Virus record (IMG/VR): IMGVR_UViG_3300029922_000248
Coordinates: 1-29,164 of that record
Direction: 5' to 3' (one strand)
Length of the DNA: 29,164 nucleotides
From: a virus
This document shows, in pieces, positions 10,846-29,164 of the stretch. The notes under the pieces were generated by a model, which had not been told where the DNA came from, searched no databases, and worked only from the letters and a program-made list of their open reading frames with translations. Position 1 is the first letter of the stretch; the number at the start of each line of letters is the position of its first letter. The translations under genes were made by a program, and so were the position numbers.

Positions 10846-10872
10846 GATGTTGTGGTAAAGTTGCCCGGGTAG
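10744..10872 (+). CDS. Possible 42-residue acidic Cys-containing peptide
   Basis: A GTG-started frame lies between the peptidase and the helicase promoter. The product is acidic (LSEEQEDVEDRR) with three cysteines in ECEDECC. There is no convincing ribosome binding site, and its end overlaps the -35 box of the helicase promoter. The opposite strand carries an equally open hydrophobic frame over the same bases, which is expected when Glu/Asp codons are read backwards, so at most one of the two is likely real. Recorded because the 164-base gap is otherwise unexplained. Confidence 0.2.
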   Translation: MFFYGLVRLSEEQEDVEDRRPHLPECEDECCTPQDVVVKLPG

Positions 10873-10890
10873 TACTACCTATGGTATAAT
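10861..10890 (+). promoter_or_regulatory. Strong promoter of the SNF2-like helicase
   Basis: TTGCCC (10861-10866), 18-base spacer, TATAAT (10885-10890) preceded by TGG, which makes it an extended -10. Transcription should start near 10897 and the ATG is at 10900, with no ribosome binding site between, so the mRNA is leaderless or has at most a few leader bases. Confidence 0.75.
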
Positions 10891-10899
10891 TGCTCCTTC

Positions 10900-12486
10900 A
10901 TGGGTCTATTCCGAGATGAGTTCAAGGCATACGAATTCCAGGCAGAGCATGTTGCTATCGCCTACACTAGGCCGTCAACTCTGTTGACGTGGGATACAGG
11001 AGCGGGGAAAAGCGTAGCTGCCCTAGCTTTGGCCTGCTTGATGCTCGAAGACGACAGGGTAGATAACGTCATCCTTGTGTGCGAGAAGAACAAGCTCGTA
11101 GACACCGAGTGGCCGAAGGATATCGAGAAGTTTACGTCGATCCCTTGGGGGCTCTACTATGGGACTCCGGCCAAGCGTGCCAAGCTTAGAGAGAACCTTC
11201 CAACCTTGGTTCTGACTACCTACGACACAATCAAACGAGACGCCGCTGTATTCCCTCCTAAGGCGTCCAAACGAAGTAAGCCTCTCCCTACCCCCGGTCC
11301 GCTTCTAGAGGCCCTAGAGGGGCGCAGGGTGCTTCTCGTGTACGACGAGACTACGAGACTAGCCAACCGAACGTCCGACACCCACAAGGCCCACAAGCTG
11401 TTCGTAGACACCCTGGCTTCGGGGGCAGGTCTAACCACCCTGGCGATGACGGCTACCCCGATGGAGAAGGACCCGGTTTCTCTTTACAACCTTGGTCGAA
11501 TCCTGACCCCTCACACGATGCCTACGGTGAGCGAGTTTGAACACGACTACGTATCGAGTTGGGACATCTTTCGCAACCCCTCCCGGTTCAAAAACTTGAA
11601 GGCCGACGAGATGACCCCGAGGCCCGATGGAACCGTACCGATTCCGTTGGCAGATCGGTTCAAAGGGATCGTCCTGAGGAAGCGAAAGAGCGATCCTGAC
11701 GTGGTGAAAATGTTCCCGAAGAGGCGTGAGCTACCACCCCTGTTCGTAGACCTTGGGAAGACTCACAGAGACTTCTACGACACCGTTCAGAAAATCTCCC
11801 AGAGCCTATCTGACTTCGAGCAGAGACAATACGTCAACGTCCTCCGACAGATAGCCGGTCATCCCATGGCTCTCACCCTAGCCGAGGGAGATGTGGCTAA
11901 GGAAATCGTAAGTCACGTCAGTCCCGATGGACTCAAGTCTATGGGGTCTGCCAAGACGGACCGCATGCTGTCGTGGTGTCACGAGGTAGTGAAAGACCAG
12001 GGGGCTCAAGCAATCATCTTCACCTATTTTGCCCACACCGTCATGCCGTTCCTACAAGAGGCTCTCGAAGTAGACGGGTACACCGTCAGCGTCAACCACG
12101 GAGGACTCTCTCTTCCCGCCAAGAGTATGGCTCAGAAGAGATTCAAGGATGGGGAGACTCAAATCTTCCTCACCTCGGATGCCGGGTCCAAAGGACTCAA
12201 TCTCCCAGAGGCTACGTACCTACTGCACTACGAACGACCCCCGCTCCATTCTCTGTTCGTCCAGAGGTCTGATCGAATCCACCGGATTGACTCTCTGGCC
12301 GACACCGTGTACATCTACTCTCTGGTTGCCAGAGGGACTATCGAGGAAGGTCTGTACGAACTCAACCTCAGACGGAACGACTGGTCAGACAAACTACTGG
12401 GGGATGACGAGACAGATGACACGGCGTTCCTCAAGGCTTCGGATCGAAAGCTACTTCTCAAACAAGGCAGAGCACTACACACATAG
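10900..12486 (+). CDS. SNF2-like superfamily 2 helicase/translocase
   Basis: The 528-residue product has both RecA-like lobes. Lobe 1: Walker A DTGAGKS (Lys37), the motif II variant DETT (149-152) in place of DEAH, and TATP (184-187). Lobe 2: FLTSDAGSKGLNLPEATYLL (motif V region) and QRSDRIHRID (motif VI, 455-464), typical of SNF2 proteins, which translocate on duplex DNA and displace bound proteins rather than unwind it. Phages use such enzymes in replication, recombination or gene control; which one applies here cannot be told. The ATG at 10900 is chosen because it sits where transcription from the promoter just upstream should begin. It precedes a small gene that has its own AGGAGG. Confidence 0.85.
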   Translation: MGLFRDEFKAYEFQAEHVAIAYTRPSTLLTWDTGAGKSVAALALACLMLEDDRVDNVILVCEKNKLVDTEWPKDIEKFTSIPWGLYYGTPAKRAKLRENLPTLVLTTYDTIKRDAAVFPPKASKRSKPLPTPGPLLEALEGRRVLLVYDETTRLANRTSDTHKAHKLFVDTLASGAGLTTLAMTATPMEKDPVSLYNLGRILTPHTMPTVSEFEHDYVSSWDIFRNPSRFKNLKADEMTPRPDGTVPIPLADRFKGIVLRKRKSDPDVVKMFPKRRELPPLFVDLGKTHRDFYDTVQKISQSLSDFEQRQYVNVLRQIAGHPMALTLAEGDVAKEIVSHVSPDGLKSMGSAKTDRMLSWCHEVVKDQGAQAIIFTYFAHTVMPFLQEALEVDGYTVSVNHGGLSLPAKSMAQKRFKDGETQIFLTSDAGSKGLNLPEATYLLHYERPPLHSLFVQRSDRIHRIDSLADTVYIYSLVARGTIEEGLYELNLRRNDWSDKLLGDDETDDTAFLKASDRKLLLKQGRALHT

Positions 12487-12495
12487 GAGGACTCA

Positions 12496-12831
12496 ATGAG
12501 TCAGAGCATCACCGACAAAATCAAAGAGCACGTCAACAACTCGATAGACGCCTTCTCGCAAGGAGAAACCATTGAGTGGGACGTGTTCCCCATCATGGGA
12601 CCGGAAGGTAATGTGGCCCACTGCATCAGTCTGGTGGGGTCCTCTCCGGTTCTAGGGGAAACCATTCAGACTAGCGGACTCATCATGGGGGCGAAGGATG
12701 CTCAGGGCGAGAACATCGCCCAGTACGTCCAGCAAGCCCTTGAGGCCATCCGTCAGCAGAGGACCAAGCTTCTCTCGACCGAGCTACCTACCGCCCACAC
12801 GTTGCAGGTCCCTGGCCTGAGTGGGAGTTAG
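12496..12831 (+). CDS. Conserved-looking protein of unknown function
   Basis: ATG with a perfect AGGAGG at 12485-12490, which overlaps the stop of the helicase gene; the pair is co-transcribed. The 111-residue product is soluble and mixed alpha/beta, with a helix-rich C-terminal half (AQYVQQALEAIRQQRTKLLS). No family recognised. Its strong binding site, unlike the leaderless helicase upstream, suggests higher translation than its partner. A possible terminator follows at 12853-12888. Confidence 0.7.
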   Translation: MSQSITDKIKEHVNNSIDAFSQGETIEWDVFPIMGPEGNVAHCISLVGSSPVLGETIQTSGLIMGAKDAQGENIAQYVQQALEAIRQQRTKLLSTELPTAHTLQVPGLSGS

Positions 12832-12852
12832 ATCGGTCCAGAACCGACCACA

Positions 12853-12888
12853 CTCACATCGGTGAGGCCCGTCGTGCTCGATTTTTTT
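12853..12888 (+). terminator. Possible intrinsic terminator
   Basis: A 5-bp hairpin CTCAC-ATCG-GTGAG (12853-12866) followed, 15 bases later, by seven T (12882-12888). The gap between stem and T-run is longer than in a classic terminator, although weaker GAG/CTC and ATC/GAT pairings can close nearer the T-run. It lies after the helicase unit and before the next promoter. Confidence 0.4.
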
Positions 12889-12956
12889 AGTGCAGTTGTG
12901 GTCGCCTGAGTGACCGTGCGCCGTGTACTCTGGGCATAGTGCCATGTGATTTTACC

Positions 12957-12984
12957 TTGACTTGGTTTCGGTTACGTGTATGCT
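12957..12984 (+). promoter_or_regulatory. Promoter of the small membrane protein gene at 12992
   Basis: TTGACT (12957-12962), 16-base spacer, TATGCT (12979-12984). Seven bases separate the -10 from the ATG at 12992, so the transcript should start at the start codon. No ribosome binding site is present. Confidence 0.6.
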
Positions 12985-12991
12985 ATCAGTC

Positions 12992-13237
12992 ATGACCAAC
13001 GACATCAAGCGGTTCGAAGAGAAAAAGCAGTGGCTTGGGAAATTCTTCCTGACCCTTGCGATGATCCTGTTCGTATTCTGGGTGGTTGGCATTACCCCAG
13101 ACTTTGGATGGGTGGCCTCGGCAGTATTCTTCGTACTGCTTCTGGTGAGCGGAACTCACTACTCACGTAAGGTGGCTAGGATTCGTTCTAAGGCTCCCAA
13201 GCTGGATAGAGGGGGCCACGTAACCCTGATCGATTAG
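12992..13237 (+). CDS. Small two-pass membrane protein
   Basis: ATG at 12992 is preferred over the in-frame TTG at 12962, which would lie in the promoter. The 81-residue product has a charged N-terminus (DIKRFEEKKQW), two hydrophobic segments at about 17-35 and 39-55 joined by a short turn (ITPDFG), and a basic cytoplasm-like tail (SRKVARIRSKAPK). Both termini are probably inside by the positive-inside rule. Function unknown; small membrane proteins of early phage regions often act in superinfection exclusion or on host envelope proteins, but nothing here shows that. It converges on the minus-strand gene with 27 bases between. Confidence 0.65.
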   Translation: MTNDIKRFEEKKQWLGKFFLTLAMILFVFWVVGITPDFGWVASAVFFVLLLVSGTHYSRKVARIRSKAPKLDRGGHVTLID

Positions 13238-13264
13238 CAGGGCTTAGATCGAAGCACAGAGGGT

Positions 13265-13603
13265 CTAGGGGGTAACCCCACCCCGGTAGTCCACTTTCAG
13301 TGCTGCCTCTCTGAATAGAGAGGTGCCGGTACACGGGCACCGATGGTTTGTACTATGATCGAAGCACGTAGGTGCCACACATACTCTGGTAGCTGGGTGA
13401 TGGATAGTTCGAGCATGGCCGCAGTCCTCGCAGATATCTGTAGGATGAGGGTCTGTCACTCGATCATTGTCCATCCACCACCGATCAGTACGAAGTGGGG
13501 CTAGGTCGTGTTGTTTGCGGTCTTCCTCGTTGGCTTCCATTGGAGTCAAGTATACATGACCAGGAAGCACTTGACAAGTGCCTTCTCGTCTGTCATACTT
13601 CAT
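13265..13603 (-). CDS. Cys-rich putative zinc-binding protein (only clear minus-strand gene)
   Basis: ATG at 13603 gives 112 residues; an in-frame GTG at 13615 would add four. The N-terminal half is hydrophilic. The second half has six cysteines and several histidines: ICEDCGHARTIHH (Cys58, Cys61), Cys75, Cys80, and HRCPC (Cys89, Cys91). The spacing, a CxxCGH unit followed by a CxC near the end with an aromatic residue after it, matches small actinobacterial and actinophage zinc-ribbon proteins I recall, which argues that this frame is real. No good ribosome binding site or promoter was found on the minus strand. Its 5' part is crossed by a plus-strand promoter at 13571. Function unknown; DNA or RNA binding is possible. 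Confidence 0.6.
   Translation of the reverse strand: MKYDRREGTCQVLPGHVYLTPMEANEEDRKQHDLAPLRTDRWWMDNDRVTDPHPTDICEDCGHARTIHHPATRVCVAPTCFDHSTNHRCPCTGTSLFREAALKVDYRGGVTP
13567..13581. repeat. Inverted repeat overlapping a -35 box (candidate operator)
   Basis: GCACTT-GAC-AAGTGC is a perfect 6-bp inverted repeat with a 3-base centre. It contains the TTGACA -35 box of the plus-strand promoter at 13571 and lies inside the first codons of the minus-strand Cys-rich gene, so a protein bound here could affect both. Confidence 0.4.
13571..13599 (+). promoter_or_regulatory. Plus-strand promoter facing a non-coding region
   Basis: Consensus -35 TTGACA (13571-13576), 17-base spacer, CATACT (13594-13599). 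Predicted start near 13606. No start codon lies at that distance and no long frame follows, so the product would be an untranslated RNA, or a very long leader for the gene at 13993. The promoter is inside, and antisense to, the minus-strand gene. Confidence 0.5.
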
Positions 13604-13605
13604 AG

Positions 13606-13860
13606 GTCGTTCCACTCAGTGTGTCCGAGCGATGACCGTGGTTAGGCCAGAGAGCAAACCCATGGTGAGGACCATTACGAACCGAGAGTCAAGCTAACTC
13701 TCCGTCATCGGCACCCATTCTCTGAGTGGGAAGCTCCGAAAAGGGCTTACATTGTGCTGCCTGACGTTAAATCTAGGACTGTGGAAAAGTTGGGGAAATC
13801 CCGACAAGTACTACTCTCTGTTAGAAAGCAGAAGCTAACGCTTCTAAAATACTAACAGGT
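13606..13860 (+). ncRNA. Candidate structured non-coding RNA
   Basis: This is part of the only stretch above 300 bases without a recognised gene (13604-13992). Base pairing visible on the plus strand: a 7-bp closing stem CGATGAC (13630-13636) with GTCATCG (13704-13710) enclosing ATGGT-GAGG-ACCAT (13662-13675) and GAGAGT/ACTCTC around a 7-base loop (13684-13702); then CCCATTC-TCT-GAGTGGG (13714-13730), AAGCTC/GGGCTT (13731-13748), GTTGGGG-AAA-TCCCGAC (13789-13805) and AGAAGC-TAAC-GCTTCT (13830-13845). The first part has a multi-branch, cloverleaf-like outline but does not satisfy tRNA rules. No T-run terminator was found, so the 3' end is unknown. The order promoter, paired region, second promoter supports an RNA, but no covariation evidence is available. 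Confidence 0.35.
13807..13826 (+). repeat. Promoter-like element, copy 1
   Basis: This 20-base stretch, beginning with the palindrome AGTACT, matches 13872-13891 at 16 of 20 positions. In this copy the segment that corresponds to the TATAAT box is degenerate, so it may be a binding site or a decayed promoter duplicate. Confidence 0.45.
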
Positions 13861-13863
13861 AAA

Positions 13864-13892
13864 TTGTCTTCAGTACTTCTTTGTGTTATAAT
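13864..13892 (+). promoter_or_regulatory. Strong extended -10 promoter with structured leader
   Basis: TTGTCT (13864-13869), 17-base spacer, TATAAT (13887-13892) preceded by TGT. Predicted start at 13899, the first base of CTACTGT, which pairs with ACAGTAG at 13921-13927. A second, longer stem, TAAAGTAGA (13910-13918) with TCTACTTTA (13928-13936), uses overlapping bases. The RNA would give the gene at 13993 a leader of about 94 bases. Confidence 0.7.
13872..13891 (+). repeat. Promoter-like element, copy 2 (inside an active-looking promoter)
   Basis: Second copy of the element at 13807. Its AGTACT palindrome lies in the spacer of the promoter at 13864-13892 and its end supplies the first five bases of the TATAAT box. 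Two similar sites 65 bases apart would suit a dimeric regulator or looping. Confidence 0.45.
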
Positions 13893-13898
13893 TGTACT

Positions 13899-13936
13899 CT
13901 ACTGTTTTGTAAAGTAGATTACAGTAGTCTACTTTA
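13899..13936 (+). promoter_or_regulatory. Two alternative hairpins in the leader
   Basis: Stem A pairs 13899-13905 with 13921-13927 (7 bp). Stem B pairs 13910-13918 with 13928-13936 (9 bp). They interlock; with no bases between the 3' arms a pseudoknot seems sterically poor, so they are probably mutually exclusive, as in a switch, or they mark palindromic protein sites in DNA. Confidence 0.4.
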
Positions 13937-13956
13937 GACTGTCCAGACCAGGGGAC

Positions 13957-13985
13957 TTGACAAGCCGAGGGGTTTCGACTAGCAT
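13957..13985 (+). promoter_or_regulatory. Second promoter of the gene at 13993 (leaderless)
   Basis: Consensus TTGACA (13957-13962), 17-base spacer, TAGCAT (13980-13985), then seven bases to the ATG at 13993. The -35 lies in ACTTGACAAG, the same 10 bases as at the promoter 13571. A long-frame start at the TTG of the -35 box is therefore not the real start. Confidence 0.6.
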
Positions 13986-13992
13986 GGTCAGC

Positions 13993-14451
13993 ATGACCAC
14001 CACCACTAGACGTACCAAGAAGAGCAAGCCCTACCGAAGCAAGGACTTCACCCTCGTGGAGTCACTCCCCTCTCTGGGGGTGAGCTTCCATGACCAGTGC
14101 CACGTCATCTCAGCGGCCGGGGTGAAGGAAGGTCCACCGGCTACGTTCCTGTCGGCCCGAGTCGACTCCGCTGGCAATCCGGTTGAGGTGAACGTGCTTT
14201 ACGGCTACTCCAAAGAGTCGGCCAAGCACCTTCGTACCTTCCGGCCCGACCGCATCCGGTTCCAAGCCGTCAAGAATGGTCGAGTCGAAGCCGTGAAGAG
14301 TCGAGACGTTCACAAGAAGCCTCGCACCTTTTCGTCTGCTCGCTACCACTATCCCCGGGCCGACTTCGGGTGCATCGACACCGTTCACTGCCTGCACACC
14401 ACGACCATCGTCGGGAAGTCTTGCAAGTGCTGCGGCGGCGTGGTAAAGTGA
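13993..14451 (+). CDS. Basic Cys/His-containing protein of unknown function
   Basis: ATG at 13993 gives 152 residues and lies where transcription from the promoter 13957-13985 should begin; the alternative ATG at 13984 lies in the -10 box. The N-terminus is very basic (RRTKKSKPYRSK), the middle is beta-rich with FLSARVDSAGNPVEVNVLYG, and the end carries a cysteine cluster (GKSCKCCGGVVK) together with His and Cys residues in CIDTVHCLHTTT, which may bind zinc. Basic plus zinc-like suggests nucleic acid binding, but no family is recognised. It can be transcribed both with a 94-base structured leader and without any leader. Its last codons hold the promoter of the methyltransferase. Confidence 0.65.
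   Translation: MTTTTRRTKKSKPYRSKDFTLVESLPSLGVSFHDQCHVISAAGVKEGPPATFLSARVDSAGNPVEVNVLYGYSKESAKHLRTFRPDRIRFQAVKNGRVEAVKSRDVHKKPRTFSSARYHYPRADFGCIDTVHCLHTTTIVGKSCKCCGGVVK
14421..14449 (+). promoter_or_regulatory. Promoter of the methyltransferase, inside the preceding gene
   Basis: TTGCAA (14421-14426), 17-base spacer, TAAAGT (14444-14449) preceded by TGG (extended -10), then seven bases to the ATG at 14457. The hexamers are weaker than at the other sites, but the spacing is the same as at 13957 and 16983. Confidence 0.45.
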
Positions 14452-14456
14452 CCGCC

Positions 14457-15914
14457 ATGCCAATCACCCTACCCACTACTGCTGACCCCGCTCTGATTCT
14501 TCACGGAGACTGCATCGAAGTAATGTCTCGGATCGAGTCGGAGTCCATCGACTCTATCGTGTGTGATCCCCCCTACAACCTCGCCTTCATGGGCAAAAAG
14601 TGGGACGATAAGGGGGAAGGAAAGTCCTTCCAGAATTGGTGTGAATCGTGGGCGACCGAGGCACTCCGTGTCCTCAAGCCGGGTGGCCACCTACTGGCGT
14701 TCGGTGGGACGAGGACGTACCACAGGTTGGCGTGCGGGATTGAGGATGCTGGGTTCGAGGTTAGGGACAGCATCCACTGGATATACGGCAGTGGGTTCCC
14801 GAAGTCTCAGAACGTGTCGAAGATGATCGACAAGATGGCTGGTGCTAAGCGGGAGGTGGTGGGCACGAAGGTAGGGCTACCTGGCTATAGCCTGACTGAT
14901 AATCCAGGAGAGGGCGTTGCTATGAGTGGCAACGTAGACGGTTCGCTCCGCAACCCGGTGGCTGAGTGTGAGATAACTGCCCCCGCCACCCCCGCAGCCG
15001 TACAGTGGGACGGTTGGGGTACCGCTATCAAGCCCGCTCACGAGCCCATCGTTGTAGCCCGGAAACCATTCAAGGGGACTGTCGTGGCGAATGTGTTGGA
15101 GCACGGGGTGGGAGCACTCAACATCGACGGCACCCGGATCGGCAATAGTACAAGAACCAACTCTAGTGGTCCGTCCGTTGAACAAAATGGATTTGTAAAG
15201 GGTTTCGTCGGGGGTACAGAAACAGAACAGCACAACTTTGGTCGCTGGCCTGCCAACCTAATTCTGAGTCACGACGAGGATTGTGTGGAGGTCGGGATGC
15301 GGAAGGCGAAGACTAGCGAGGCGGTGGAGGAGAACGGTGTCACGTCGAATGGAGTGACCGTGGTGGAAAGCTACGCCCCGGGTACAAAGAACGTCCCCCA
15401 CGCCGATGCCGATGGAACAGAAACGACCCCCGCCTACGAGTGCGTCCCAGGCTGCCCGGTAGCGGAACTGGACCGACAGAGCGGCATCCGTCATGGATTC
15501 AAGGCTCAGAACTTCAACAGACCTGGTGCGAGCTATAGTAAATCCATCTTCATAGGTGTAGGGTCGGGTTCGGACCACATACCCCAGGCGTATAATGATA
15601 TTGGTGGCGCTAGCATGTTCTTCTACAAGGCCAAAGCGTCAAAAAAGGACCGTAATTACGGAATGCCGGATGGGGAAAAGAACATTCATCCTACTGTCAA
15701 ACCTATAGCTCTTATTCAATACCTGTGTCGTCTAGTTACCCCTCCGGGCGGTATAGTTCTAACCCCATTCAATGGAAGTGGCACCACGGGTATAGCTTCC
15801 ATTAGAGAGGGTTTTCGGTTTGTTGGCATTGACAACAACGAAGATTACATCGAAATCGCCACCAACAGGATCGTACAATCAATCATCGACTCAAGGAAAG
15901 TAGGTGTTGCGTAA
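14457..15914 (+). CDS. Site-specific DNA methyltransferase (amino-MTase)
   Basis: ATG at 14457 (485 residues) fits the leaderless promoter just upstream; an in-frame GTG at 14448 overlapping the previous stop is the alternative. Motif IV is DPPY (37-40) near the N-terminus and the AdoMet-binding motif I is at the C-terminus (TPFNGSGTTG, about 436-445, then FVGID). This circular order, with the target-recognition region between, is that of beta-class N6-adenine or N4-cytosine enzymes; DPPY favours adenine. HPTVKPIALIQYL is another family hallmark. The long middle (CVPGCPVAELDRQSG, GGASMFFYKAKAS) matches the phage-specific form of this family. No restriction partner is nearby, so protection of phage DNA from host restriction or gene control is likely. 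The last 300 bases look more AT-rich than the middle. Confidence 0.9.
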   Translation: MPITLPTTADPALILHGDCIEVMSRIESESIDSIVCDPPYNLAFMGKKWDDKGEGKSFQNWCESWATEALRVLKPGGHLLAFGGTRTYHRLACGIEDAGFEVRDSIHWIYGSGFPKSQNVSKMIDKMAGAKREVVGTKVGLPGYSLTDNPGEGVAMSGNVDGSLRNPVAECEITAPATPAAVQWDGWGTAIKPAHEPIVVARKPFKGTVVANVLEHGVGALNIDGTRIGNSTRTNSSGPSVEQNGFVKGFVGGTETEQHNFGRWPANLILSHDEDCVEVGMRKAKTSEAVEENGVTSNGVTVVESYAPGTKNVPHADADGTETTPAYECVPGCPVAELDRQSGIRHGFKAQNFNRPGASYSKSIFIGVGSGSDHIPQAYNDIGGASMFFYKAKASKKDRNYGMPDGEKNIHPTVKPIALIQYLCRLVTPPGGIVLTPFNGSGTTGIASIREGFRFVGIDNNEDYIEIATNRIVQSIIDSRKVGVA

Positions 15915-15919
15915 CCAAC

Positions 15920-16064
15920 CTCTCACACGGACTGAGAGACTCGCACACACAGCCATACGTAAGTGAGGCCATTGTTACCCTTCCCGGTACGTGGCTGGGC
16001 CTTGAATGAACAGATGCGATAGTCCATAGCAAAACCAACATAGAAGAAGTCGCAATCCTGCGAC
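15920..16064 (+). promoter_or_regulatory. Structured leader of the Rpf-like gene
   Basis: The 172-base gap holds CTCTC/GAGAG (15920-15938), a bulged stem AGCCA..CGTA (15951-15961) with TACGTGGCT (15988-15996), and GTCGCA-ATCC-TGCGAC (16049-16064), the last ending 10 bases before the ribosome binding site. No convincing promoter was found; TTGAAT at 16002 has only a poor -10 partner. Confidence 0.3.
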
Positions 16065-16086
16065 CCACATCGAAAGAAGGTCAGCT

Positions 16087-16713
16087 ATGCTAAAGCGCAT
16101 CGCACTGACAGTTGTATTCATCGTCATATTCGTCGCAACAATAGGATCACCATGGGCAACGGCTTCGGGGACAGCACCATATCGGCCGCACACTCCGCAT
16201 TTGTTTCTGCAATCGAGTCCGGTTCTCTTCGCCTTCCCGCTAGTGAACCTAACTGGAAAAGTATCCCCGGCACCGTCATCAAAGGTGGGTCCTGTAGCTG
16301 TAGTCGTTCCCCCTACAACGCCAACTACCACAACTTCAACCACGGACCCACCCTCTGTTTCCGTAAGGGCTCCATCGACTCCTGCACCTGCGGTCATCCC
16401 GAGTGTGACGGTTTCCACCACCACCACGACGGTACCGACTGCACCGACGCCTGTACCCACCTCTGGTAGCGGACCCACCGCTGAACAGATAGCCGAGTGG
16501 GCCGTGGTGAGTGTGTGCGAGAACGGACCGGGAGCTTGGAATCCCCCACTCGGTTCGGCCTTTCCCGACTCCCTTGGAATCAAGGCGGTGAATTGGTACT
16601 CGAACGGAGGGGGAAGTGACCTGTCTCCTTCGGCACAGACGGCCGTGGCAATCCGTATCGAAGGTGCCGGATACGTACCCGACCAGAATGGGTGTAGCAA
16701 GACCGGTTGGTAA
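16087..16713 (+). CDS. Secreted Rpf-like (lysozyme-fold) peptidoglycan hydrolase
   Basis: ATG at 16087 with AGAAGG at 16075-16080. Residues 1-26 form a signal peptide (LKR, then ALTVVFIVIFVATIG, cleavage after ATA). Residues 60-130 are a Thr/Pro/Ser linker. Residues 131-208 resemble the resuscitation-promoting factor / transglycosylase-like domain: EWAVVSVCENG with candidate catalytic Glu145, DSLGIKAVNW, an AQTAVAIRI helix and PDQNGC; Cys144 and Cys203 could form the usual disulfide. Such domains cut the glycan strand of actinobacterial walls. A phage copy with a Sec signal could act as an exported lysin or alter the wall of the infected cell. It is the only leadered gene in this stretch besides the one at 12496. 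A 258-residue open frame on the other strand is a shadow. Confidence 0.7.
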   Translation: MLKRIALTVVFIVIFVATIGSPWATASGTAPYRPHTPHLFLQSSPVLFAFPLVNLTGKVSPAPSSKVGPVAVVVPPTTPTTTTSTTDPPSVSVRAPSTPAPAVIPSVTVSTTTTTVPTAPTPVPTSGSGPTAEQIAEWAVVSVCENGPGAWNPPLGSAFPDSLGIKAVNWYSNGGGSDLSPSAQTAVAIRIEGAGYVPDQNGCSKTGW

Positions 16714-16715
16714 TG

Positions 16716-16724
16716 TGATAAGAT
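16716..16724 (+). promoter_or_regulatory. Extended -10 promoter, weak -35
   Basis: TGA followed by TAAGAT (16719-16724), then seven bases to the ATG at 16732. The upstream TAGCAA (16695-16700) is a poor -35. The call rests on the extended -10 and on the same seven-base distance found at four other genes in this window. Confidence 0.35.
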
Positions 16725-16731
16725 GTCTACC

Positions 16732-16986
16732 ATGGTAGACATCCTTGTCAACGTGTTCGGTTGGGTCGGAGCCCTGTCGGTATTGCTCGCCTACTTCTTG
16801 GTGACGACCGGTAGGGTTCCGGCCCGTGGGTGGTTGTTCCAGTCTCTCAATCTGTTAGGGGCTGTCGGCCTCGGGATGGTGAGTGTCTATTACCACGTCT
16901 TGCCGAATGTGGCCCTCAACTTCGTGTGGCTGCTGATCGCTGTCTCTGGACTCTGGTCGCTACGTCCTGGTAGCGATTCTGCTTGA
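16732..16986 (+). CDS. CBU_0592-like small membrane protein
   Basis: The 84-residue product has three hydrophobic spans: GWVGALSVLLAYFLVTTG (9-26), LFQSLNLLGAVGLGMVSVYY (about 35-54) and VALNFVWLLIAVSGL (about 60-76). The pattern WVGA..LLAY followed by Q.LNL.GA.GL and P..ALN.VW matches the CBU_0592 family of bacterial membrane proteins as I remember it. Function of the family is unknown. ATG 16732 is preferred over ATG 16723, which would fall in the -10 box. The end of the gene contains the -35 box of the next promoter. Looks like a host-derived gene. Confidence 0.65.
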   Translation: MVDILVNVFGWVGALSVLLAYFLVTTGRVPARGWLFQSLNLLGAVGLGMVSVYYHVLPNVALNFVWLLIAVSGLWSLRPGSDSA

Positions 16987-17011
16987 CGATCACTGAAGAC
17001 TCGACTATACT
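16983..17011 (+). promoter_or_regulatory. Promoter of the DinG-replication operon
   Basis: TTGACG (16983-16988), 17-base spacer, TATACT (17006-17011), seven bases, ATG at 17019. This is the best leaderless promoter of the window and probably drives the ten-gene operon up to 25057. The TTG of the -35 box opens the long reading frame but is not the start codon. Confidence 0.75.
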
Positions 17012-17018
17012 GAGGTCT

Positions 17019-19070
17019 ATGACACCCGTAACCGACTTCGAGACAGCACAGGACAACCTTGCGGCCTCGCTTCCCAACTACGAGCGTAGGGAGAAGCAGA
17101 GTAGGCTCGCACACAAGATCGAGTCTCAGATTCGTGGTGAGGGAACTTCTCGCCATGCTCTCTTGCAGGCGTCGACTGGAACTGGCAAGTCGCTTGCCTA
17201 TCTCATTCCTGCAATCCTCTCTGGCAAGAAGGTCGTGGTGTCGACTGCCACCAAGGCGCTTCAAGATCAGATCGTCGGCAAGGACTTGCCCTTCCTTCAG
17301 GAGCACCTTGGAGTTGACTTCACCTACGCCATGCTCAAGGGACGGAGCAACTACGTATGCCGAGCCTCCGTAGAGGGACTCGAAGGCGATGACGCCCCCC
17401 TCAAGACGACGGTCGAGAAGGTGTTCGAGGCCAAGAAGGATGCAACCGACTTCCTGGCAGAGAGGGACGATTTCGATATCGAGGACCGTGTGTGGCCGAA
17501 GCTCACCGTATCCTCTTCCGAGTGCCCTGGGCGTAGCGAGTGTCCGTTCGGGGACGAGTGCTTCGTTGAGAAGGCTAGGGCCAATGCAATGAACGCTCAG
17601 GTTGTCGTCGTCAACCATTCGCTTCTCCTTACCGATGCGTGGTTGGACGAGGTGTCTAACGGCAACGGAACCCTCCTTCCTGATTATGAGGTTCTGATTG
17701 TTGACGAGGCCCATGAGCTTGCCGAGTACGCTTCCTCTGTATGGGGGGTGACTCTCAAGGAGAATCAACTCCTCAAGCTTGGCACTGACGTTGGAGTACA
17801 TATCGGTCGTTTCGACGCAGAACTGGCCCGGGAGCTTTCCATGGTCGTCCACGAGTACACCGATGGGGTGACCAACCTATGGAAGAGCCTGAGCGAGGGG
17901 CGCCTTCGTCAGAACGAGGTGATCGAACTTGCCGATCACATCATCACCGTCAGCGCCGAACTGCAAGAGATTCTCGACATCGTTAAGTCGGCCAAGCCTC
18001 GCAAGAACAACAACTCTGCCGAGCAGAACAAGAAGTTGGCTGCCGCCCATCTCAAGATTGTTCGTCGTATCGAGAATATGATCGACACCGTTCAGTCGCT
18101 TATCACCGACGACTTCTCGGAGGTGGTTCGTTGGGTGTCTATCGAGCCTACGCTCGTTCGGGGTCGCAAGGGAGTCGACATCAAGGTCATCAACTCGGTC
18201 CCCATCGAGGTAGGCAAGATTCTTGAGCGAGAGCTTTGGGCCACAGACCGTCTGTGCAGGAAGTGTGACGGAAAGGTTTCTGATAGCACGTGTGGCCGTT
18301 GCAACGACCGTCGCACCAAGACCAACATTACCTCCCTTCTTCTGTCGGCTACCCTGAGCATCGGAGGTCAGTTCGACTACGTTTCCAATCAACTCGGACT
18401 TTCCAGCTACGACTCGTTCGACGTAGGAACTCCGTTCGACTTCCCGAACAGGGCTCGACTCTACGTTCCGGCTCACCTTCCCGAGCCCAATAGTGACAGT
18501 CGGTCGTGGGAGGGAATGTCTATCTCCGAGATTGACAAGCTGGTCCGGGCTAGCGACGGACGTGCCCTCCTTCTCTTCACGTCGAACAAGCAGATGAGGT
18601 CGGCTTACGAGGTGCTGTCTTCCCGTCTTCCGTACACCTGTTTCATTCAGGGCTCTGAGTCGAACAAGGTGCTCGCCGGAAAGTTCATGGAAGACACTCA
18701 CTCTGTCCTGTTTGCTACCAAGTCGTTCTTCACCGGAGTCGACTTCCAAGGATCAGCGTGCTCTTTGGTGGTGATGGATAAGCTCCCATTCGCCGTACCG
18801 ACCGATCCAGTTTTCCAGGCCCGGTGCGAGGCCATAGAAGCTCGTGGTGGAAACACCTTCAATGACTACACCATCCCGATGATGACCTTGATCCTTCAGC
18901 AAGGTTTTGGACGACTGATCCGTCACACCGAAGACACCGGAGTGGTTGCCATCCTCGACCGTCGTCTCACCACCAAGGGGTACGGAAAGCGTATCGTCAG
19001 GGCTCTTCCCGACGCCCCACTCATCACCACCATGGATGAGGTGTCTGACTTCTTCGAGTCAGTGTCATGA
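17019..19070 (+). CDS. dinG: DinG/XPD-like Fe-S helicase
   Basis: 683 residues from ATG 17019. Walker A STGTGKS (Lys57); Cys114 in GRSNYVC and Cys169, Cys175, Cys181 are placed like the four ligands of the DinG/XPD 4Fe-4S cluster; DEAH at 229-232; SATL at 443-446; motif VI QQGFGRLIR (627-635). This family unwinds DNA 5' to 3' and resolves D-loops and R-loops. Unusual is an extra CxxC...CxxC unit, Cys413, Cys416, Cys425 and Cys428, just before SATL, which looks like an inserted zinc ribbon. A polar, Asn/Lys-rich stretch (PRKNNNSAEQNKK) lies at 327-339. The gene heads an operon and overlaps the next start by four bases (ATGA). Confidence 0.9.
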   Translation: MTPVTDFETAQDNLAASLPNYERREKQSRLAHKIESQIRGEGTSRHALLQASTGTGKSLAYLIPAILSGKKVVVSTATKALQDQIVGKDLPFLQEHLGVDFTYAMLKGRSNYVCRASVEGLEGDDAPLKTTVEKVFEAKKDATDFLAERDDFDIEDRVWPKLTVSSSECPGRSECPFGDECFVEKARANAMNAQVVVVNHSLLLTDAWLDEVSNGNGTLLPDYEVLIVDEAHELAEYASSVWGVTLKENQLLKLGTDVGVHIGRFDAELARELSMVVHEYTDGVTNLWKSLSEGRLRQNEVIELADHIITVSAELQEILDIVKSAKPRKNNNSAEQNKKLAAAHLKIVRRIENMIDTVQSLITDDFSEVVRWVSIEPTLVRGRKGVDIKVINSVPIEVGKILERELWATDRLCRKCDGKVSDSTCGRCNDRRTKTNITSLLLSATLSIGGQFDYVSNQLGLSSYDSFDVGTPFDFPNRARLYVPAHLPEPNSDSRSWEGMSISEIDKLVRASDGRALLLFTSNKQMRSAYEVLSSRLPYTCFIQGSESNKVLAGKFMEDTHSVLFATKSFFTGVDFQGSACSLVVMDKLPFAVPTDPVFQARCEAIEARGGNTFNDYTIPMMTLILQQGFGRLIRHTEDTGVVAILDRRLTTKGYGKRIVRALPDAPLITTMDEVSDFFESVS

Positions 19071-19374: not shown

Positions 19375-20046
19375 ATGACAACGACCCAGACAGTAGACAC
19401 GTTCATCAATCCCGATGCCATCAAGGCGAAGATCGCCACCGGCTCCATCACCCTAGCGGAGGTGACCCGGGCAATCGCCAAGCCAGAGTCGCCTGCCCTT
19501 CCGGTTGCTGTTGCTCCGCTCCCGTCCAAGATCACCGTCGGTCAGCAGAAGGCGCTGACCCACCTGGAAGAGGTCTACGGAGTTGTTCAGCCCGAAGAGG
19601 TTCGTGCGCTCACCGACGCAGAGGTGGTCGAACTGATGGAAGAGCGGTTGACTCTCGATGAGGTAGAGAAGGTGGCTACCGCTCGAAAGGAGTCCATCAA
19701 GACCGCCGTGCTCAACCACATCGACACCGTGGTGGGAGACGGACCCCGCAACAAGGAGGGTCACGTTCTCACGCCGACCAAGGTCGAGTCGGTCGACCAC
19801 CAGAAGGCATTCTCGTGGGAGGTTAGCAACCGTGGGGGCTCCATCGATGCCGCATCACTCAAGGCGCTCGAAGAGTCTGGTGACCTATCCCACGACGACT
19901 ACCTGGCCCTGACCGATCAGGTACGTGTGGTGAACGAGTCTAAGGTGATGCTCGCTCTGCAAAAGAATCCCAAGCTGCTCGACGTGCTGGCGAAGGCCGT
20001 CACTGGAACATCGCAGGTTGGTTCCCTCTACGTTCGAAAGGCGTAA
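19375..20046 (+). CDS. Helical protein of unknown function
   Basis: ATG two bases after the previous stop, with GGTAGGGTG upstream. 223 residues, mostly predicted helix: LTDAEVVELMEERLTLDEVEK and KVESVDHQKAFSWEVSNRGG are typical stretches. The second half (VRVVNESKVMLALQKNPKLL) might form a small helical bundle. No cysteines, membrane spans or catalytic motif. Its place between the DinG and loader genes suggests a DNA metabolism role, but this is only context. Confidence 0.7.
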   Translation: MTTTQTVDTFINPDAIKAKIATGSITLAEVTRAIAKPESPALPVAVAPLPSKITVGQQKALTHLEEVYGVVQPEEVRALTDAEVVELMEERLTLDEVEKVATARKESIKTAVLNHIDTVVGDGPRNKEGHVLTPTKVESVDHQKAFSWEVSNRGGSIDAASLKALEESGDLSHDDYLALTDQVRVVNESKVMLALQKNPKLLDVLAKAVTGTSQVGSLYVRKA

Positions 20047-24301: not shown

Positions 24302-25057
24302 TTGCTTCAGAGACTCTCTGGTCAGGAGTTAGTAGACGCTACGGATCGCACCACGATTGATCCCGAGCGGCCGTTCCTGGTTGGTGTTGGACCCGCAGAG
24401 TTTTCTACCTCAGTGGCGATTGAGCCGTGGCCGTCCATTATCTGGGACACGAATCTCTTCTACCGAGATATGGGGGTACACCCAAAGGTTGATCGCAAGA
24501 GGATCAAGCAAGCTTATCTAAACAATCGAGGGCACGAGGACAATAGGCTGACGATGATCGCCTCTGTTCTCCTTAGTCCACTTAGGCGTCTGACTTACGA
24601 TCTGGTCCCTCTAGGGTCGCTCTTCTTCGATGACGAGATAGAGGAGGCCGTGAGGCGGGCAGCAGCCGCAGAAGCTTCGGGAGTCCGTGCAGGTGGCGAC
24701 GAGGTAGACGAACAGGCTCTCAATGACAAGATAGACCAGATGAGGATAACTCCCCCTGGTGAGATGGACGAGTTGCCCGAACGAGAGGACCGTTACCAGT
24801 GGTCCTACTACCTCTATAAGAGCGGTCATGACGACACCGAAAAACTTTCTTTGTGGCGCTCCGAAATCATTCGTGTTTTGCATGAATCAGGGGTTGACAA
24901 ACCACCTAGACTTGGCATAGGATACATGAGTAGTAATGATCCTTCCGAGAAGATAAGGGTTTTACAAATAGGCTTCCGTGTGGTAATATTGATAGACGAA
25001 CAAGCTTCGATTGAAGTAGATCATCTCTCCGATATCGTGAGTTCGTTCAGTCAATAA
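24302..25057 (+). CDS. J-domain-like protein lacking the HPD motif
   Basis: TTG directly after the previous stop; GAAGAAGACGAG just upstream may act as binding site. 251 residues. Residues 51-101 read like a J-domain: NLFYRDMGV (helix I), DRKRIKQAYLNN (helix II), then NRLTMIASVLLSPLRRLTYD, matching the helix III/IV pattern of DnaJ proteins (..I..A..VLSDP.KR..YD). The HPD tripeptide that stimulates Hsp70 is replaced by GHED (77-80), so it may bind but not activate DnaK. The middle is charged and probably unordered. From about 24840 the gene becomes more AT-rich and carries two promoters for the next gene. Phage lambda uses DnaJ/DnaK in origin remodelling, which makes a role near the primase plausible. 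Confidence 0.65.
   Translation: MLQRLSGQELVDATDRTTIDPERPFLVGVGPAEFSTSVAIEPWPSIIWDTNLFYRDMGVHPKVDRKRIKQAYLNNRGHEDNRLTMIASVLLSPLRRLTYDLVPLGSLFFDDEIEEAVRRAAAAEASGVRAGGDEVDEQALNDKIDQMRITPPGEMDELPEREDRYQWSYYLYKSGHDDTEKLSLWRSEIIRVLHESGVDKPPRLGIGYMSSNDPSEKIRVLQIGFRVVILIDEQASIEVDHLSDIVSSFSQ
24894..24923 (+). promoter_or_regulatory. Upstream promoter of the binding-protein gene
   Basis: Consensus TTGACA (24894-24899), 18-base spacer, TAGGAT (24918-24923), inside the J-like gene. Predicted start near 24930, giving a leader of about 195 bases for the gene at 25126. Confidence 0.45.
24961..24989 (+). promoter_or_regulatory. Proximal promoter of the binding-protein gene
   Basis: TTTACA (24961-24966), 17-base spacer, TAATAT (24984-24989) preceded by TGG (extended -10). 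Predicted start near 24996. Together with the upstream site this forms a tandem promoter pair for an abundant protein. Confidence 0.5.
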
Positions 25058-26113: not shown

Positions 26114-26171
26114 CTATCTGCTATGATGGGCCTACGGCTTAGAGGACGAGCCGTAGGCCCATTGCAGATAG
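26114..26171 (+). terminator. Large hairpin between binding protein and polymerase genes
   Basis: An outer 8-bp stem (CTATCTGC 26114-26121 with GCAGATAG 26164-26171), an asymmetric internal loop, and a perfect 13-bp inner stem (TGGGCCTACGGCT 26127-26139 with AGCCGTAGGCCCA 26149-26161) around a 9-base loop. It starts one base after the stop codon. There is no T-run, so it may be an mRNA-end stabiliser, a processing site or a partial terminator rather than an intrinsic terminator. Confidence 0.6.
26119..26127 (+). promoter_or_regulatory. Possible extended -10 promoter of the polymerase gene
   Basis: TGC followed by TATGAT (26122-26127) fits an extended -10 and sits in the foot of the large hairpin. 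No good -35 is present. A start near 26134 would give the polymerase gene a leader of about 47 bases that lacks the 5' arm of the outer stem. Confidence 0.3.
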
Positions 26172-26180
26172 GGGGCACCC

Positions 26181-29164
26181 ATGAGGCATACCGTTATTCA
26201 GTCGTTCCATCCTTCTCCCTACCACCACTCGGGTGAGTATCCATCTCCCTGTGTCGTTGAGGACGTTGACGGAGTAAGAATCTTCATCTCTCCACTGGGA
26301 GAGGACCCGGAAGCCATTAAGGACATTGCTCTGTCCTCTGGCTGCACGATGACGGTCATCGAAGACGTTCTCGGAGATGGCAACCGGCTAGTTAGCATCC
26401 ACCACGAAGAGGGACCGGAGTGGGCCGACGAGTTCTCCTTTCCCGGCTACCCCTCTTACCGAGAGGCCCTCTCGTTCTACGCTAGCCAGCCTACCGGAGG
26501 ATTCGTACACCTACATACCCACTCAGAGTTCTCGTCTCTGGACGGACTCTCTACCGTCAAGGAGATTGTCGAGAAGGCTGTAGCTGATCGACAGCCAGCC
26601 ATTGCCATCACCGACCACGGTACGTGCGCCTCGCACCCGCACCTTCAGACCGAATGCGACAAGGCTGGCATTCAGGCCATCTTCGGTCTTGAGGCCAACT
26701 TCGTAGACGACAGGTTCCGTAGGCCAATCACCGCACCCAAGGGCTCTTCTAAGGAAGAGCTAGATATGGTCAAGCAGGATCAGTCCGAGGTTCGAGACTA
26801 CTGGCACTTGATTCTGTGGGCGCAGAACGACGTTGGTCTACGCAATCTCTGGGCCATGTCTACGGAGGCTAACCGAGAGGGCTTCTACTACCGACCAAGA
26901 ATGGACTGGGACACCATTGAGAAATACTCTGAGGGCGTTATGTGCTCGACGGCCTGTCTCCGTGGTCCGGTATCGTCGGCCATTCTAGAGGGCAGGGACG
27001 ACTTGGCCCTGGCTCGCATGGCTCGACTCAAGGACATCTTTGGTGATCGTCTCTACGCAGAGATTCACACCAACGGACTAGAGCAGCAGAAGACCGTCAA
27101 CGAGACAGTCGTTTCGTTGGCCGACTCTCTATCTGTCCCGCTGATTGCGGTTACCGACTCTCACTACTCGTGCCCGGAACACAAGGATGCTCACCACGTC
27201 TGGATTGCCGCCCAGACTAACAAGTCGTTGGGAGACGATAGCGGACTGTTCGAGGACGATGCCGACTATCACATCATGACTCGGAGTGAGGTAGAGCAGT
27301 CTCTTAGCTACATGAATCCATCCGTTGTTCAGACGGCTATGTCGAACACTGTTCGTCTAGCCCAGCGATGTTCTGCTCGACTCTCTGGTGATCCCACCCC
27401 TCCGATCTACTCTGTTAGAGGAGGAGTTGAAGCTGACAAGGAAACTCTCATCGATCTGTGTCTCGCTCACTGGGAAGAGAAGGTCGTTGGCAAGTCCCGT
27501 CCTCAGAGTGAATACGTAGAGCGATTCGAGTATGAGATGAAAATGCTCATCTCGAAAGACCTGTGTGGCTATTTCGACATTGTGGCCGACTATTGTCAGT
27601 GGTCTAAGCGTAACGGCATCCTGGTGGGTCCTGGTCGGGGTAGCGGAGGTGCCTCCCTGGTCGCTTATCTGTGTGGAATCATTGAGATTGATCCCGTTGA
27701 CGCTGAGCTACCCTTTGGACGTTTCCTAACTCAGGGACGTACTGAGCTTCCCGACTTCGATATCGACTTCCCAAGCGAGCGTCTTCCAGACGTGATCGCT
27801 TACGTGGTCGACAAGTGGGGAGAGGAGAGTGTGGTCCGAGTAGGAACTCACATCAAGCTCAAGAGCAAGGGTGTCGTTCGGGACGTTGCACGAACCCTCA
27901 AGGGGATGGTCGAGATTGACTACACAGACCTTGAGGCCATTTCCAAGATCATCGACAACGCAGAACGAAACACCGCTGGTCTTGGTCTGTCGTGGGAGGA
28001 ACTGTGGAACCTTCATGGAGATGAACTAGGTCCATACCGCTCTCTGTATCCTCGCTTGTTCGAGTTGTGCGACATCATGGTAGGTCGACTCAAGAGCTAT
28101 GGTAAGCACGCTGCCGGTCTTGTGATCGCTGCCGGAGAGAACCTCACTGACCGCCTACCTCTTAGGCGTGGTGGCGACAACGATGACGAGCTTGTGGCCG
28201 AGTTTGACAAGGATGCTCTGGCCGCTTTGGGCCTAGTTAAGTTCGACTTCCTCGGACTGAGGAACCTCGACACCCTTCAGCGGTGTGTCGATTTGGTCAA
28301 GGTCCGTACGGGGGAGGTGATCGATCTATACCGTTGGAAGAGCGAGTACGCAGAGGACAACGTGTGGTCCTTTCTCTCTGAGGGCAACACCCTGGGGTGC
28401 TTCCAGATTGAGACTACGGTGGGCACTCGAATGACTCGTTACGTTCAGCCCAAGAATCTGCACGACCTTGCCGACGTTATTACCCTCGACCGACCGGGAC
28501 CAATGAGAAGTGGGCTAGACAAGCTGTATCTAGATCGTCGGTTCGGGAGGGCTCCGGTTACGTACGCCGATCCCCGACTGAAAGACGTGCTTCACCGCAC
28601 CTACGGAGTCATGCTCTACCAAGAGGACATCATGGGTATCTGCCAGAAGCTAGCAGGATACGACGAAGAGCAGGCCGACTATGTTCGGAGTATTCTGGGC
28701 AAGAAGAAGGTCGAGGCCGCTAAGGTTGAGGGCCGCAAGATCGTGTCTGCCGCCATCGAACGAGGGATGACCCAAGAGGCAATCGAGGCCATCTGGACTC
28801 AGATGGAGGAGTTCTCTCGCTACAGCTTTAACAAGGCCCACGCTTACGGATACGCTGTCCTGGCCTACTGGTGCGCCTGGTTGAGTTACCACTACCCCGT
28901 CGAGTTCTTCACTGCGGCTATGTCGACCGTAGATGCCGCTCGCATTCCCGAGTTCGTCATTGGCTCGAAGGCTCGAAAGTCTCCCGTGCTGCCCCCCGAC
29001 ATCAACGTGTCCGGTCTTGGGTTCACGGCCGACGAGTCAGTGATCCGATTCGGTCTGGACGCCATCAAGGGGGTGGGAGACAAGGCGGCAGCCAGCATCA
29101 TCGAACAGCAACCGTACTCGTCCTTCGAGGAGTTCATGGAGAGGAAGCCGGTCAACATCGGAGT
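26181..29164 (+). CDS. dnaE: DnaE-type DNA polymerase III alpha subunit (3' partial)
   Basis: ATG at 26181 with an AGGGGG-like site just upstream; the frame runs off the right edge after about 994 residues, so perhaps 150-250 residues are missing. The PHP domain starts at about residue 108 (FVHLHTHSEFSSLDGL, ITDHGT). The palm carries GPGRGSGGASLVAYL and the catalytic PDFDIDF (Asp527, Asp529), followed by KFDFLGLRNL with the third Asp. Further family motifs are ITLDRPGPMRSGLD, YGVMLYQEDIMGI and FNKAHAYGYAVLAYW. The window ends in the helix-hairpin-helix region (DAIKGVGDKAAASI). About 107 residues before PHP have no counterpart in E. coli DnaE. It copies the phage genome together with the helicase, primase and binding protein upstream. 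Confidence 0.95.
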   Translation, partial: MRHTVIQSFHPSPYHHSGEYPSPCVVEDVDGVRIFISPLGEDPEAIKDIALSSGCTMTVIEDVLGDGNRLVSIHHEEGPEWADEFSFPGYPSYREALSFYASQPTGGFVHLHTHSEFSSLDGLSTVKEIVEKAVADRQPAIAITDHGTCASHPHLQTECDKAGIQAIFGLEANFVDDRFRRPITAPKGSSKEELDMVKQDQSEVRDYWHLILWAQNDVGLRNLWAMSTEANREGFYYRPRMDWDTIEKYSEGVMCSTACLRGPVSSAILEGRDDLALARMARLKDIFGDRLYAEIHTNGLEQQKTVNETVVSLADSLSVPLIAVTDSHYSCPEHKDAHHVWIAAQTNKSLGDDSGLFEDDADYHIMTRSEVEQSLSYMNPSVVQTAMSNTVRLAQRCSARLSGDPTPPIYSVRGGVEADKETLIDLCLAHWEEKVVGKSRPQSEYVERFEYEMKMLISKDLCGYFDIVADYCQWSKRNGILVGPGRGSGGASLVAYLCGIIEIDPVDAELPFGRFLTQGRTELPDFDIDFPSERLPDVIAYVVDKWGEESVVRVGTHIKLKSKGVVRDVARTLKGMVEIDYTDLEAISKIIDNAERNTAGLGLSWEELWNLHGDELGPYRSLYPRLFELCDIMVGRLKSYGKHAAGLVIAAGENLTDRLPLRRGGDNDDELVAEFDKDALAALGLVKFDFLGLRNLDTLQRCVDLVKVRTGEVIDLYRWKSEYAEDNVWSFLSEGNTLGCFQIETTVGTRMTRYVQPKNLHDLADVITLDRPGPMRSGLDKLYLDRRFGRAPVTYADPRLKDVLHRTYGVMLYQEDIMGICQKLAGYDEEQADYVRSILGKKKVEAAKVEGRKIVSAAIERGMTQEAIEAIWTQMEEFSRYSFNKAHAYGYAVLAYWCAWLSYHYPVEFFTAAMSTVDAARIPEFVIGSKARKSPVLPPDINVSGLGFTADESVIRFGLDAIKGVGDKAAASIIEQQPYSSFEEFMERKPVNIG

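What the first reader, a model, noticed from the sequence alone, without database searches (positions are those of the whole stretch)
10861..17021. A set of six leaderless genes with a fixed promoter-to-ATG distance
Six genes (ATG at 10900, 12992, 13993, 14457, 16732, 17019) have no ribosome binding site but a -10 box just upstream. In five the gap from -10 to ATG is exactly seven bases (nine at 10900), so transcription should start at the ATG. Full pairs are TTGACG-N17-TATACT, TTGACA-N17-TAGCAT, TTGACT-N16-TATGCT, TTGCAA-N17-TAAAGT and TTGCCC-N18-TATAAT. The genes at 12496, 16087 and 25126 in contrast have strong binding sites. Leaderless mRNAs are known in actinobacteria; a phage module built almost only of them, perhaps to be translated by 70S ribosomes early or under stress, would be noteworthy. 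It also corrects start codons: TTG at 13957 and 16983 are -35 boxes.
Basis: partly seen in the sequence, partly recalled or inferred. Interest (0 to 1): 0.65.

Follow-up and report, generated by a model that had tools for sequence, protein, structure and literature searches.

The report
Leaderless genes in a phage replication module
In this uncultured phage at least seven genes, probably eight, seem to have their promoter so close to the start codon that the messenger RNA begins at the start codon with no ribosome-binding site; this is common in actinobacteria and already predicted for some of their phages, and here related phages show it recurring at the same genes.

Summary
The spacing is not chance: 8 of 26 gene starts have TANNNT at gap 6-9, against 0-3 in other four-gap windows (binomial tail 7e-7). 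The three sites with a weak or missing -35 (10900, 14457, 16732) all carry an extended -10 (TGn).

Related IMG/VR phages give independent support. Of 38 orthologues of three genes (SNF2-type helicase, DinG-type helicase, the 19375 gene), 16 have TANNNT 6-9 nt before a candidate start, against 1-4 in neighbouring windows. Several others carry a Shine-Dalgarno site instead, so genes switch mode between phages.

Best reading: host SigA-type promoters initiating at or within a few nt of the AUG. No 5' end was mapped. Predicted leaderless mRNAs are already published for mycobacteriophages, so this is a well-supported new member of a known kind. A stress or early 70S programme is unsupported. 14457 and 16732 are the weakest cases.

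The parts
10861..10902 (+). Promoter TTGCCC-N18-TATAAT with extended -10 (TGg), gap 9, ATG 10900 of SNF2-type helicase (10900-12486). Leader predicted 0-3 nt.
   Evidence: closest relative L176 has TGg-TATTAT at gap 11; -10 at gap 6-9 in L179, L180, L181, L191
12957..12994 (+). Promoter TTGACT-N16-TATGCT, gap 7, ATG 12992 of an 81-aa predicted small hydrophobic protein
   Evidence: no homologue found to test
13540..13577 (-). Promoter TTGTCA-N17-TATACT, gap 8, ATG 13540 (minus strand); shares its -35 with a divergent + promoter TTGACA-N17-CATACT (13571-13599)
13265..13540 (-).
13957..13995 (+). Promoter TTGACA-N17-TAGCAT, gap 7, ATG 13993 of a 152-aa protein of unknown function; TTG 13957 is the -35, ATG 13984 overlaps the -10
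14421..14459 (+). Weaker promoter TTGCAA-N17-TAAAGT with extended -10 (TGg), gap 7, ATG 14457 of an N6/N4 DNA methyltransferase (14457-15914); overlaps the 3' end of the preceding gene (stop at 14449-14451), so reinitiation is possible
16716..16734 (+). Extended -10 (TGa-TAAGAT) without -35, gap 7, ATG 16732 of an 84-aa predicted membrane protein; alternative in-frame ATG 16723
   Evidence: orthologue in G010 is not leaderless-like
16722..16743 (.). Perfect 22-bp palindrome GATGTCTACCATGGTAGACATC centred on the ATG at 16732; as RNA it would hide that ATG in a hairpin in a leadered or read-through transcript but not in a leaderless one
16983..17021 (+). Promoter TTGACG-N17-TATACT, gap 7, ATG 17019 of DinG-type helicase (17019-19070); TTG 16983 is the -35
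   Evidence: -10 at gap 6-7 in L038, L041, L045, L088, L097
19340..19377 (+).
   Evidence: same arrangement in G010 (TTGACA-N18-TACAGT-7), G019 (TTGACA-N17-TATGGT-7), G015, G016, G013, L174

Best explanation
Each of these genes has its own host-type (SigA/sigma70-like) promoter with the -10 box 6-9 nt before an ATG, so RNA polymerase starts on, or within about 3 nt of, the A of the ATG. The host ribosome then initiates directly on the 5'-terminal AUG without a Shine-Dalgarno site. The arrangement gives single genes, including one on the opposite strand, a compact independent promoter. Shown: the sequence spacing, its excess over chance, the missing SD sites and the recurrence at orthologous genes. 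Inferred: the transcription start point, use of the host polymerase, leaderless translation and an actinobacterial host.
For: (1) Boxes and gaps exact. (2) 8 of 26 gene starts with TANNNT at gap 6-9 versus 0-3 elsewhere, tail 7e-7. (3) A scan requiring -35 >=4/6, TANNNT, 6-9 nt and ATG/GTG finds 9 places, 8 opening ORFs of at least 80 aa; 7 of those 8 are plausible gene starts and one (26940) lies inside dnaE. (4) A weak or missing -35 goes with an extended TGn -10 in 3 of 3 cases, while the five sites with a -35 of 5-6 matches lack TGn. (5) 7 of 8 have a pyrimidine before the A, matching the C at -1 and T at +2 preferred at mapped M. tuberculosis start sites (PMC3898074). (6) 16 of 38 orthologues of three genes have TANNNT at gap 6-9 of a candidate start versus 1-4 in neighbouring windows; the 19375 gene shows it in six relatives. 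(7) The distance matches the in-silico signature of leaderless genes, TANNNT about 12 bp upstream (PMC3160421). (8) Nearest cultured relatives of several proteins infect mostly actinobacteria.
Against: No 5' end is mapped. Whole-contig excess of the spacing is clear in the window but weak or absent in most relatives, so it is not a rule of the group. Orthologues in several relatives have an SD instead. 14457 could be translated by reinitiation after the overlapping upstream gene; 16732 lacks a -35 and its G010 orthologue has no such box; 10900 has gap 9 (11 in L176), so a leader of 1-4 nt is likely there; 19375 has GGAGG 12 nt upstream.
Confidence: 0.8

Rival explanations
1. The boxes are real promoters but transcription starts 2-5 nt upstream of the ATG at most of the genes, giving very short leaders rather than strictly leaderless mRNAs.
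For: Gap varies 6-9 in the window and 5-11 in relatives; sigma70 start choice is loose by 1-3 nt (general knowledge).
Against: Gap clusters at 7 in the window, and the base before the A is a pyrimidine in 7 of 8, so the A is the first favoured purine.
Confidence: 0.12
2. The genes belong to long leadered or polycistronic transcripts and are translated by coupling or SD-independent initiation; the -10-like boxes are chance or secondary promoters.
For: 14457 follows the previous stop by 5 nt and 16732 follows the previous gene by 18 nt without a -35.
Against: Excess over chance, recurrence at orthologues, and more than 150 nt without an annotated same-strand gene before 10900, 12992, 13993 and minus-strand 13540.
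Confidence: 0.05
3. The spacing reflects repressor operators overlapping the -10 and start codon (as the 22-bp palindrome at 16732), with leaderlessness a by-product.
For: Perfect palindrome 16722-16743 over the -10 end and ATG.
Against: No comparable palindrome at the other start sites in the repeat search, apart from the divergent-promoter symmetry at 13548-13600.
Confidence: 0.03

Closest known systems
Predicted leaderless promoters of cluster O mycobacteriophages (Corndog and relatives; PL1, PR2, PL2), PMC4351075
   Different: Siphoviruses with three such promoters named; here a different tailed-phage group with a baseplate J protein, about eight in 29 kb, partly at replication-module genes, with comparative support at orthologues.
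TA-led (leaderless) genes of bacteria, over 20% of genes in Actinobacteria, PMC3160421
   Same: TANNNT about 12 bp upstream of the start codon, no SD; here the first T is at -12 to -15.
   Different: That survey covers bacterial and archaeal genomes; phages are not part of the passages read.
Leaderless transcripts of Mycobacterium tuberculosis and M. smegmatis, PMC3898074 and PMC4633059
   Same: TANNNT -10, pyrimidine before the start site, ATG or GTG at the 5' end necessary and sufficient.
Adephagia gene 90 (HicAB-like locus), PMC11373665
   Same: Predicted leaderless transcript in an actinobacteriophage.
   Different: Single gene of a toxin-antitoxin pair in a temperate siphovirus.

Membership tests
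Leaderless (TA-led) bacterial genes | TANNNT -10-like box about 10-12 bp upstream of the start codon, in excess of chance | tested here: met
   (8 of 26 genes, tail 7e-7); for orthologues
Leaderless (TA-led) bacterial genes | No Shine-Dalgarno site | tested here: met
   none at 10900, 12992, 13993, 14457, 16732, minus 13540; GAGG too close (3 nt) at 17019; 19375 has a distant GGAGG and is the exception
Leaderless (TA-led) bacterial genes | ATG or GTG as first codon | tested here: met
Leaderless (TA-led) bacterial genes | Primary mRNA 5' end on the start codon | not testable with these tools
   needs dRNA-seq or Cappable-seq
SigA/sigma70-type promoters | -35 TTGACA-like, 16-18 nt spacer, TANNNT -10, or extended TGn -10 | tested here: met
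   16732 only by its TGn -10
Phage of an actinobacterial host | Host lineage with abundant leaderless genes | tested here: inconclusive
   nearest cultured relatives of several proteins are mostly actinophages; no host link was established

The most novel reading that the evidence does not exclude
In this phage group leaderless initiation is a selected, gene-specific mode for stand-alone genes of the replication module, and at 16732 the palindrome makes the protein translatable only from the leaderless transcript, because read-through mRNA hides the AUG in a hairpin.
Probability: 0.15. Interest if true: 0.6.

Novelty: new member of a known kind. Interest (0 to 1): 0.4.

Why it matters
It offers a dense predicted set of leaderless genes in a phage, with orthologues that switch between leaderless and SD-led starts in related phages. 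That is a natural series for asking how easily initiation mode changes and whether it follows time of expression. Practically, gene callers that rely on SD sites will misplace these starts (TTG 16983, TTG 13957) and can miss small opposite-strand genes such as 13540-13265.

Tried and rejected
Single-protein searches of viral contigs with the SNF2 and DinG helicases found nothing; profile searches later found them. The methyltransferase homologues are too distant for a test and show no matching upstream arrangement on inspection. Dinucleotide shuffles with an ORF-length filter were not used as the main null because shuffled DNA lacks long ORFs. Whole-contig profiles of the distant, GC-rich relatives G001-G003 show no excess at gap 7, so a group-wide rule was rejected. 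Rfam and tRNA searches of the window found nothing. Secondary peaks at gaps 26-29 and 34-37 in the orthologue tests were judged to be mostly echoes of the same -10 seen from later in-frame start codons (candidate starts listed). No homologue of 13993 was found in the phage collection; phage Corndog could not be fetched as a positive control.

Full report
WHAT THE WINDOW IS. The window is a 29,164-base linear virus record. Gene order: NlpC/P60-type tail protein, baseplate J-like protein, minor tail protein, a peptidase, SNF2-type helicase (10900), a set of small genes and a DNA methyltransferase, DinG-type helicase (17019), a conserved DUF7242 protein (19375), DnaC-like loader, DnaB-like helicase, primase, SSB and DNA polymerase III alpha. 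Much of this order recurs in several IMG/VR contigs, and the replication half resembles Rhodococcus phage E3. The closest cultured relatives of the helicases and DnaB infect mostly Mycobacterium, Gordonia, Rhodococcus, Streptomyces, Arthrobacter and Eggerthella, with some from Bacillus, Listeria and Vibrio. An actinobacterial host is likely but not shown.

THE OBSERVATION. All six boxes and gaps are exact. Three tests were run, two of them free of the bias of choosing starts to fit the motif. First, over 26 chosen gene starts TANNNT occurs at gap 6-9 in 8, against 0-3 in twelve other four-gap windows; with the local rate the binomial tail is 7e-7. Second, using every in-frame ATG/GTG near the 5' end of each ORF, the count is 8 against 0-4. 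Third, a scan of both strands for -35 (>=4/6), TANNNT, 6-9 nt and ATG/GTG found nine places, eight of them opening ORFs of at least 80 aa. The sixth reader site, 16732, has no -35.

INTERNAL CONSISTENCY. The three sites whose -35 is poor or missing (10900, 14457, 16732) all have TG one base before the -10, the extended -10 element; the five with a -35 of 5-6 matches do not. The base before the ATG is C or T in seven of eight, as preferred at mapped M. tuberculosis start sites (PMC3898074). SD sites are absent at these starts except for a distant GGAGG at 19375, while 12496, 16087 and 25126 have them.

NEW MEMBERS. Gene 19375 has a perfect TTGACA, a 17-base spacer, TAGGGT and a 6-base gap. On the opposite strand a 91-aa Cys/His-rich ORF (13540 to 13265) starts 8 nt after TATACT. 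Its homologues lie on the same opposite strand in G010 and G017 and can start with GTG 5-6 nt after TATCAT. Its promoter shares a palindromic -35 with a promoter pointing the other way. A divergent pair with leaderless starts is already described for cluster O mycobacteriophages (PMC4351075).

COMPARATIVE TEST. The result is mixed but favourable. DinG: -10 at gap 6-7 in L038 (the closest, 57%), L041, L045, L088 and L097; SD-led in G001, G002, G003 and others. The 19375 gene: -10 at gap 6-9 in G010, G013, G015, G016, G019 and L174, three of these with TTGACA or TTGACT. SNF2 helicase: gap 6-9 in L176, L179, L180, L181 and L191; none in the others. Together 16 of 38 orthologues, against 1-4 in the windows from 0 to 25 outside 6-9 and 6 at gaps 26-29. 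With one start taken per orthologue the figure is 10, against 0-5 in other windows. Orthologues thus alternate between leaderless-like and SD-led starts, a kind of change the survey of bacterial genes also infers (PMC3160421). Whole-contig excess is strong in the window and moderate in G013.

MECHANISM. Most likely the host polymerase with its vegetative sigma factor starts at the A of the ATG (or within about 3 nt for 10900), and the host ribosome initiates on the 5' AUG. In mycobacteria a 5' ATG or GTG is necessary and sufficient and gives expression comparable to leadered genes (PMC4633059), so no stress ribosome is needed. All steps after the sequence arrangement are inferred.

WEAK POINTS. 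14457 may be translated by reinitiation; 16732 rests on an extended -10 alone and may start at 16723; 19375 may use its distant SD as well. The perfect palindrome over ATG 16732 may be an operator, or may hide the AUG in read-through RNA: segment 16714-16760 folds at -17.6 kcal/mol with the ATG in the hairpin, whereas RNA beginning at the ATG lacks the upstream arm.

VERDICT. Observation confirmed and extended; leaderless reading probable; special programme unsupported; new member of a known kind.

Noticed in passing
13265-13540 (-): Unlisted 91-aa Cys/His-rich gene on the opposite strand, conserved in G010 and G017, with its own leaderless-like promoter.
   Followed up: yes
12784-12945 (-): 53-aa ORF on the opposite strand, Cys/His-rich, divergent from 12992, with AAGG 9 nt upstream: possibly another small gene.
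   Followed up: partly
16722-16743: Perfect 22-bp palindrome GATGTCTACCATGGTAGACATC centred on a start codon.
   Followed up: partly
13548-13600: Near-symmetric divergent promoter pair sharing a -35 palindrome (CACTTGACAAGTG).
   Followed up: partly
13600-13957: About 350 bases without a + strand gene but with promoter-like sites (13571, 13864) and an inverted repeat TAAAGTAG...CTACTTTA (13910-13936): possible small RNA or regulatory leader.
   Followed up: no
26119-26181: Extended -10 TGc-TATGAT followed at once by a GGGCCTACGGC...GCCGTAGGCCC hairpin and an SD before the dnaE ATG: a structured leader, in contrast to the leaderless genes.
   Followed up: no
24894-24990: Cluster of promoter-like sites, including TTGACA-N18-TAGGAT, inside the 3' part of the 24302 gene, upstream of the SD-led SSB gene.
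   Followed up: no
16087-16713: Secreted-looking protein with a Thr/Pro-rich linker; its C-terminal part resembles Rpf/transglycosylase-like domains by eye only, with no Pfam match at 0.01.
   Followed up: no
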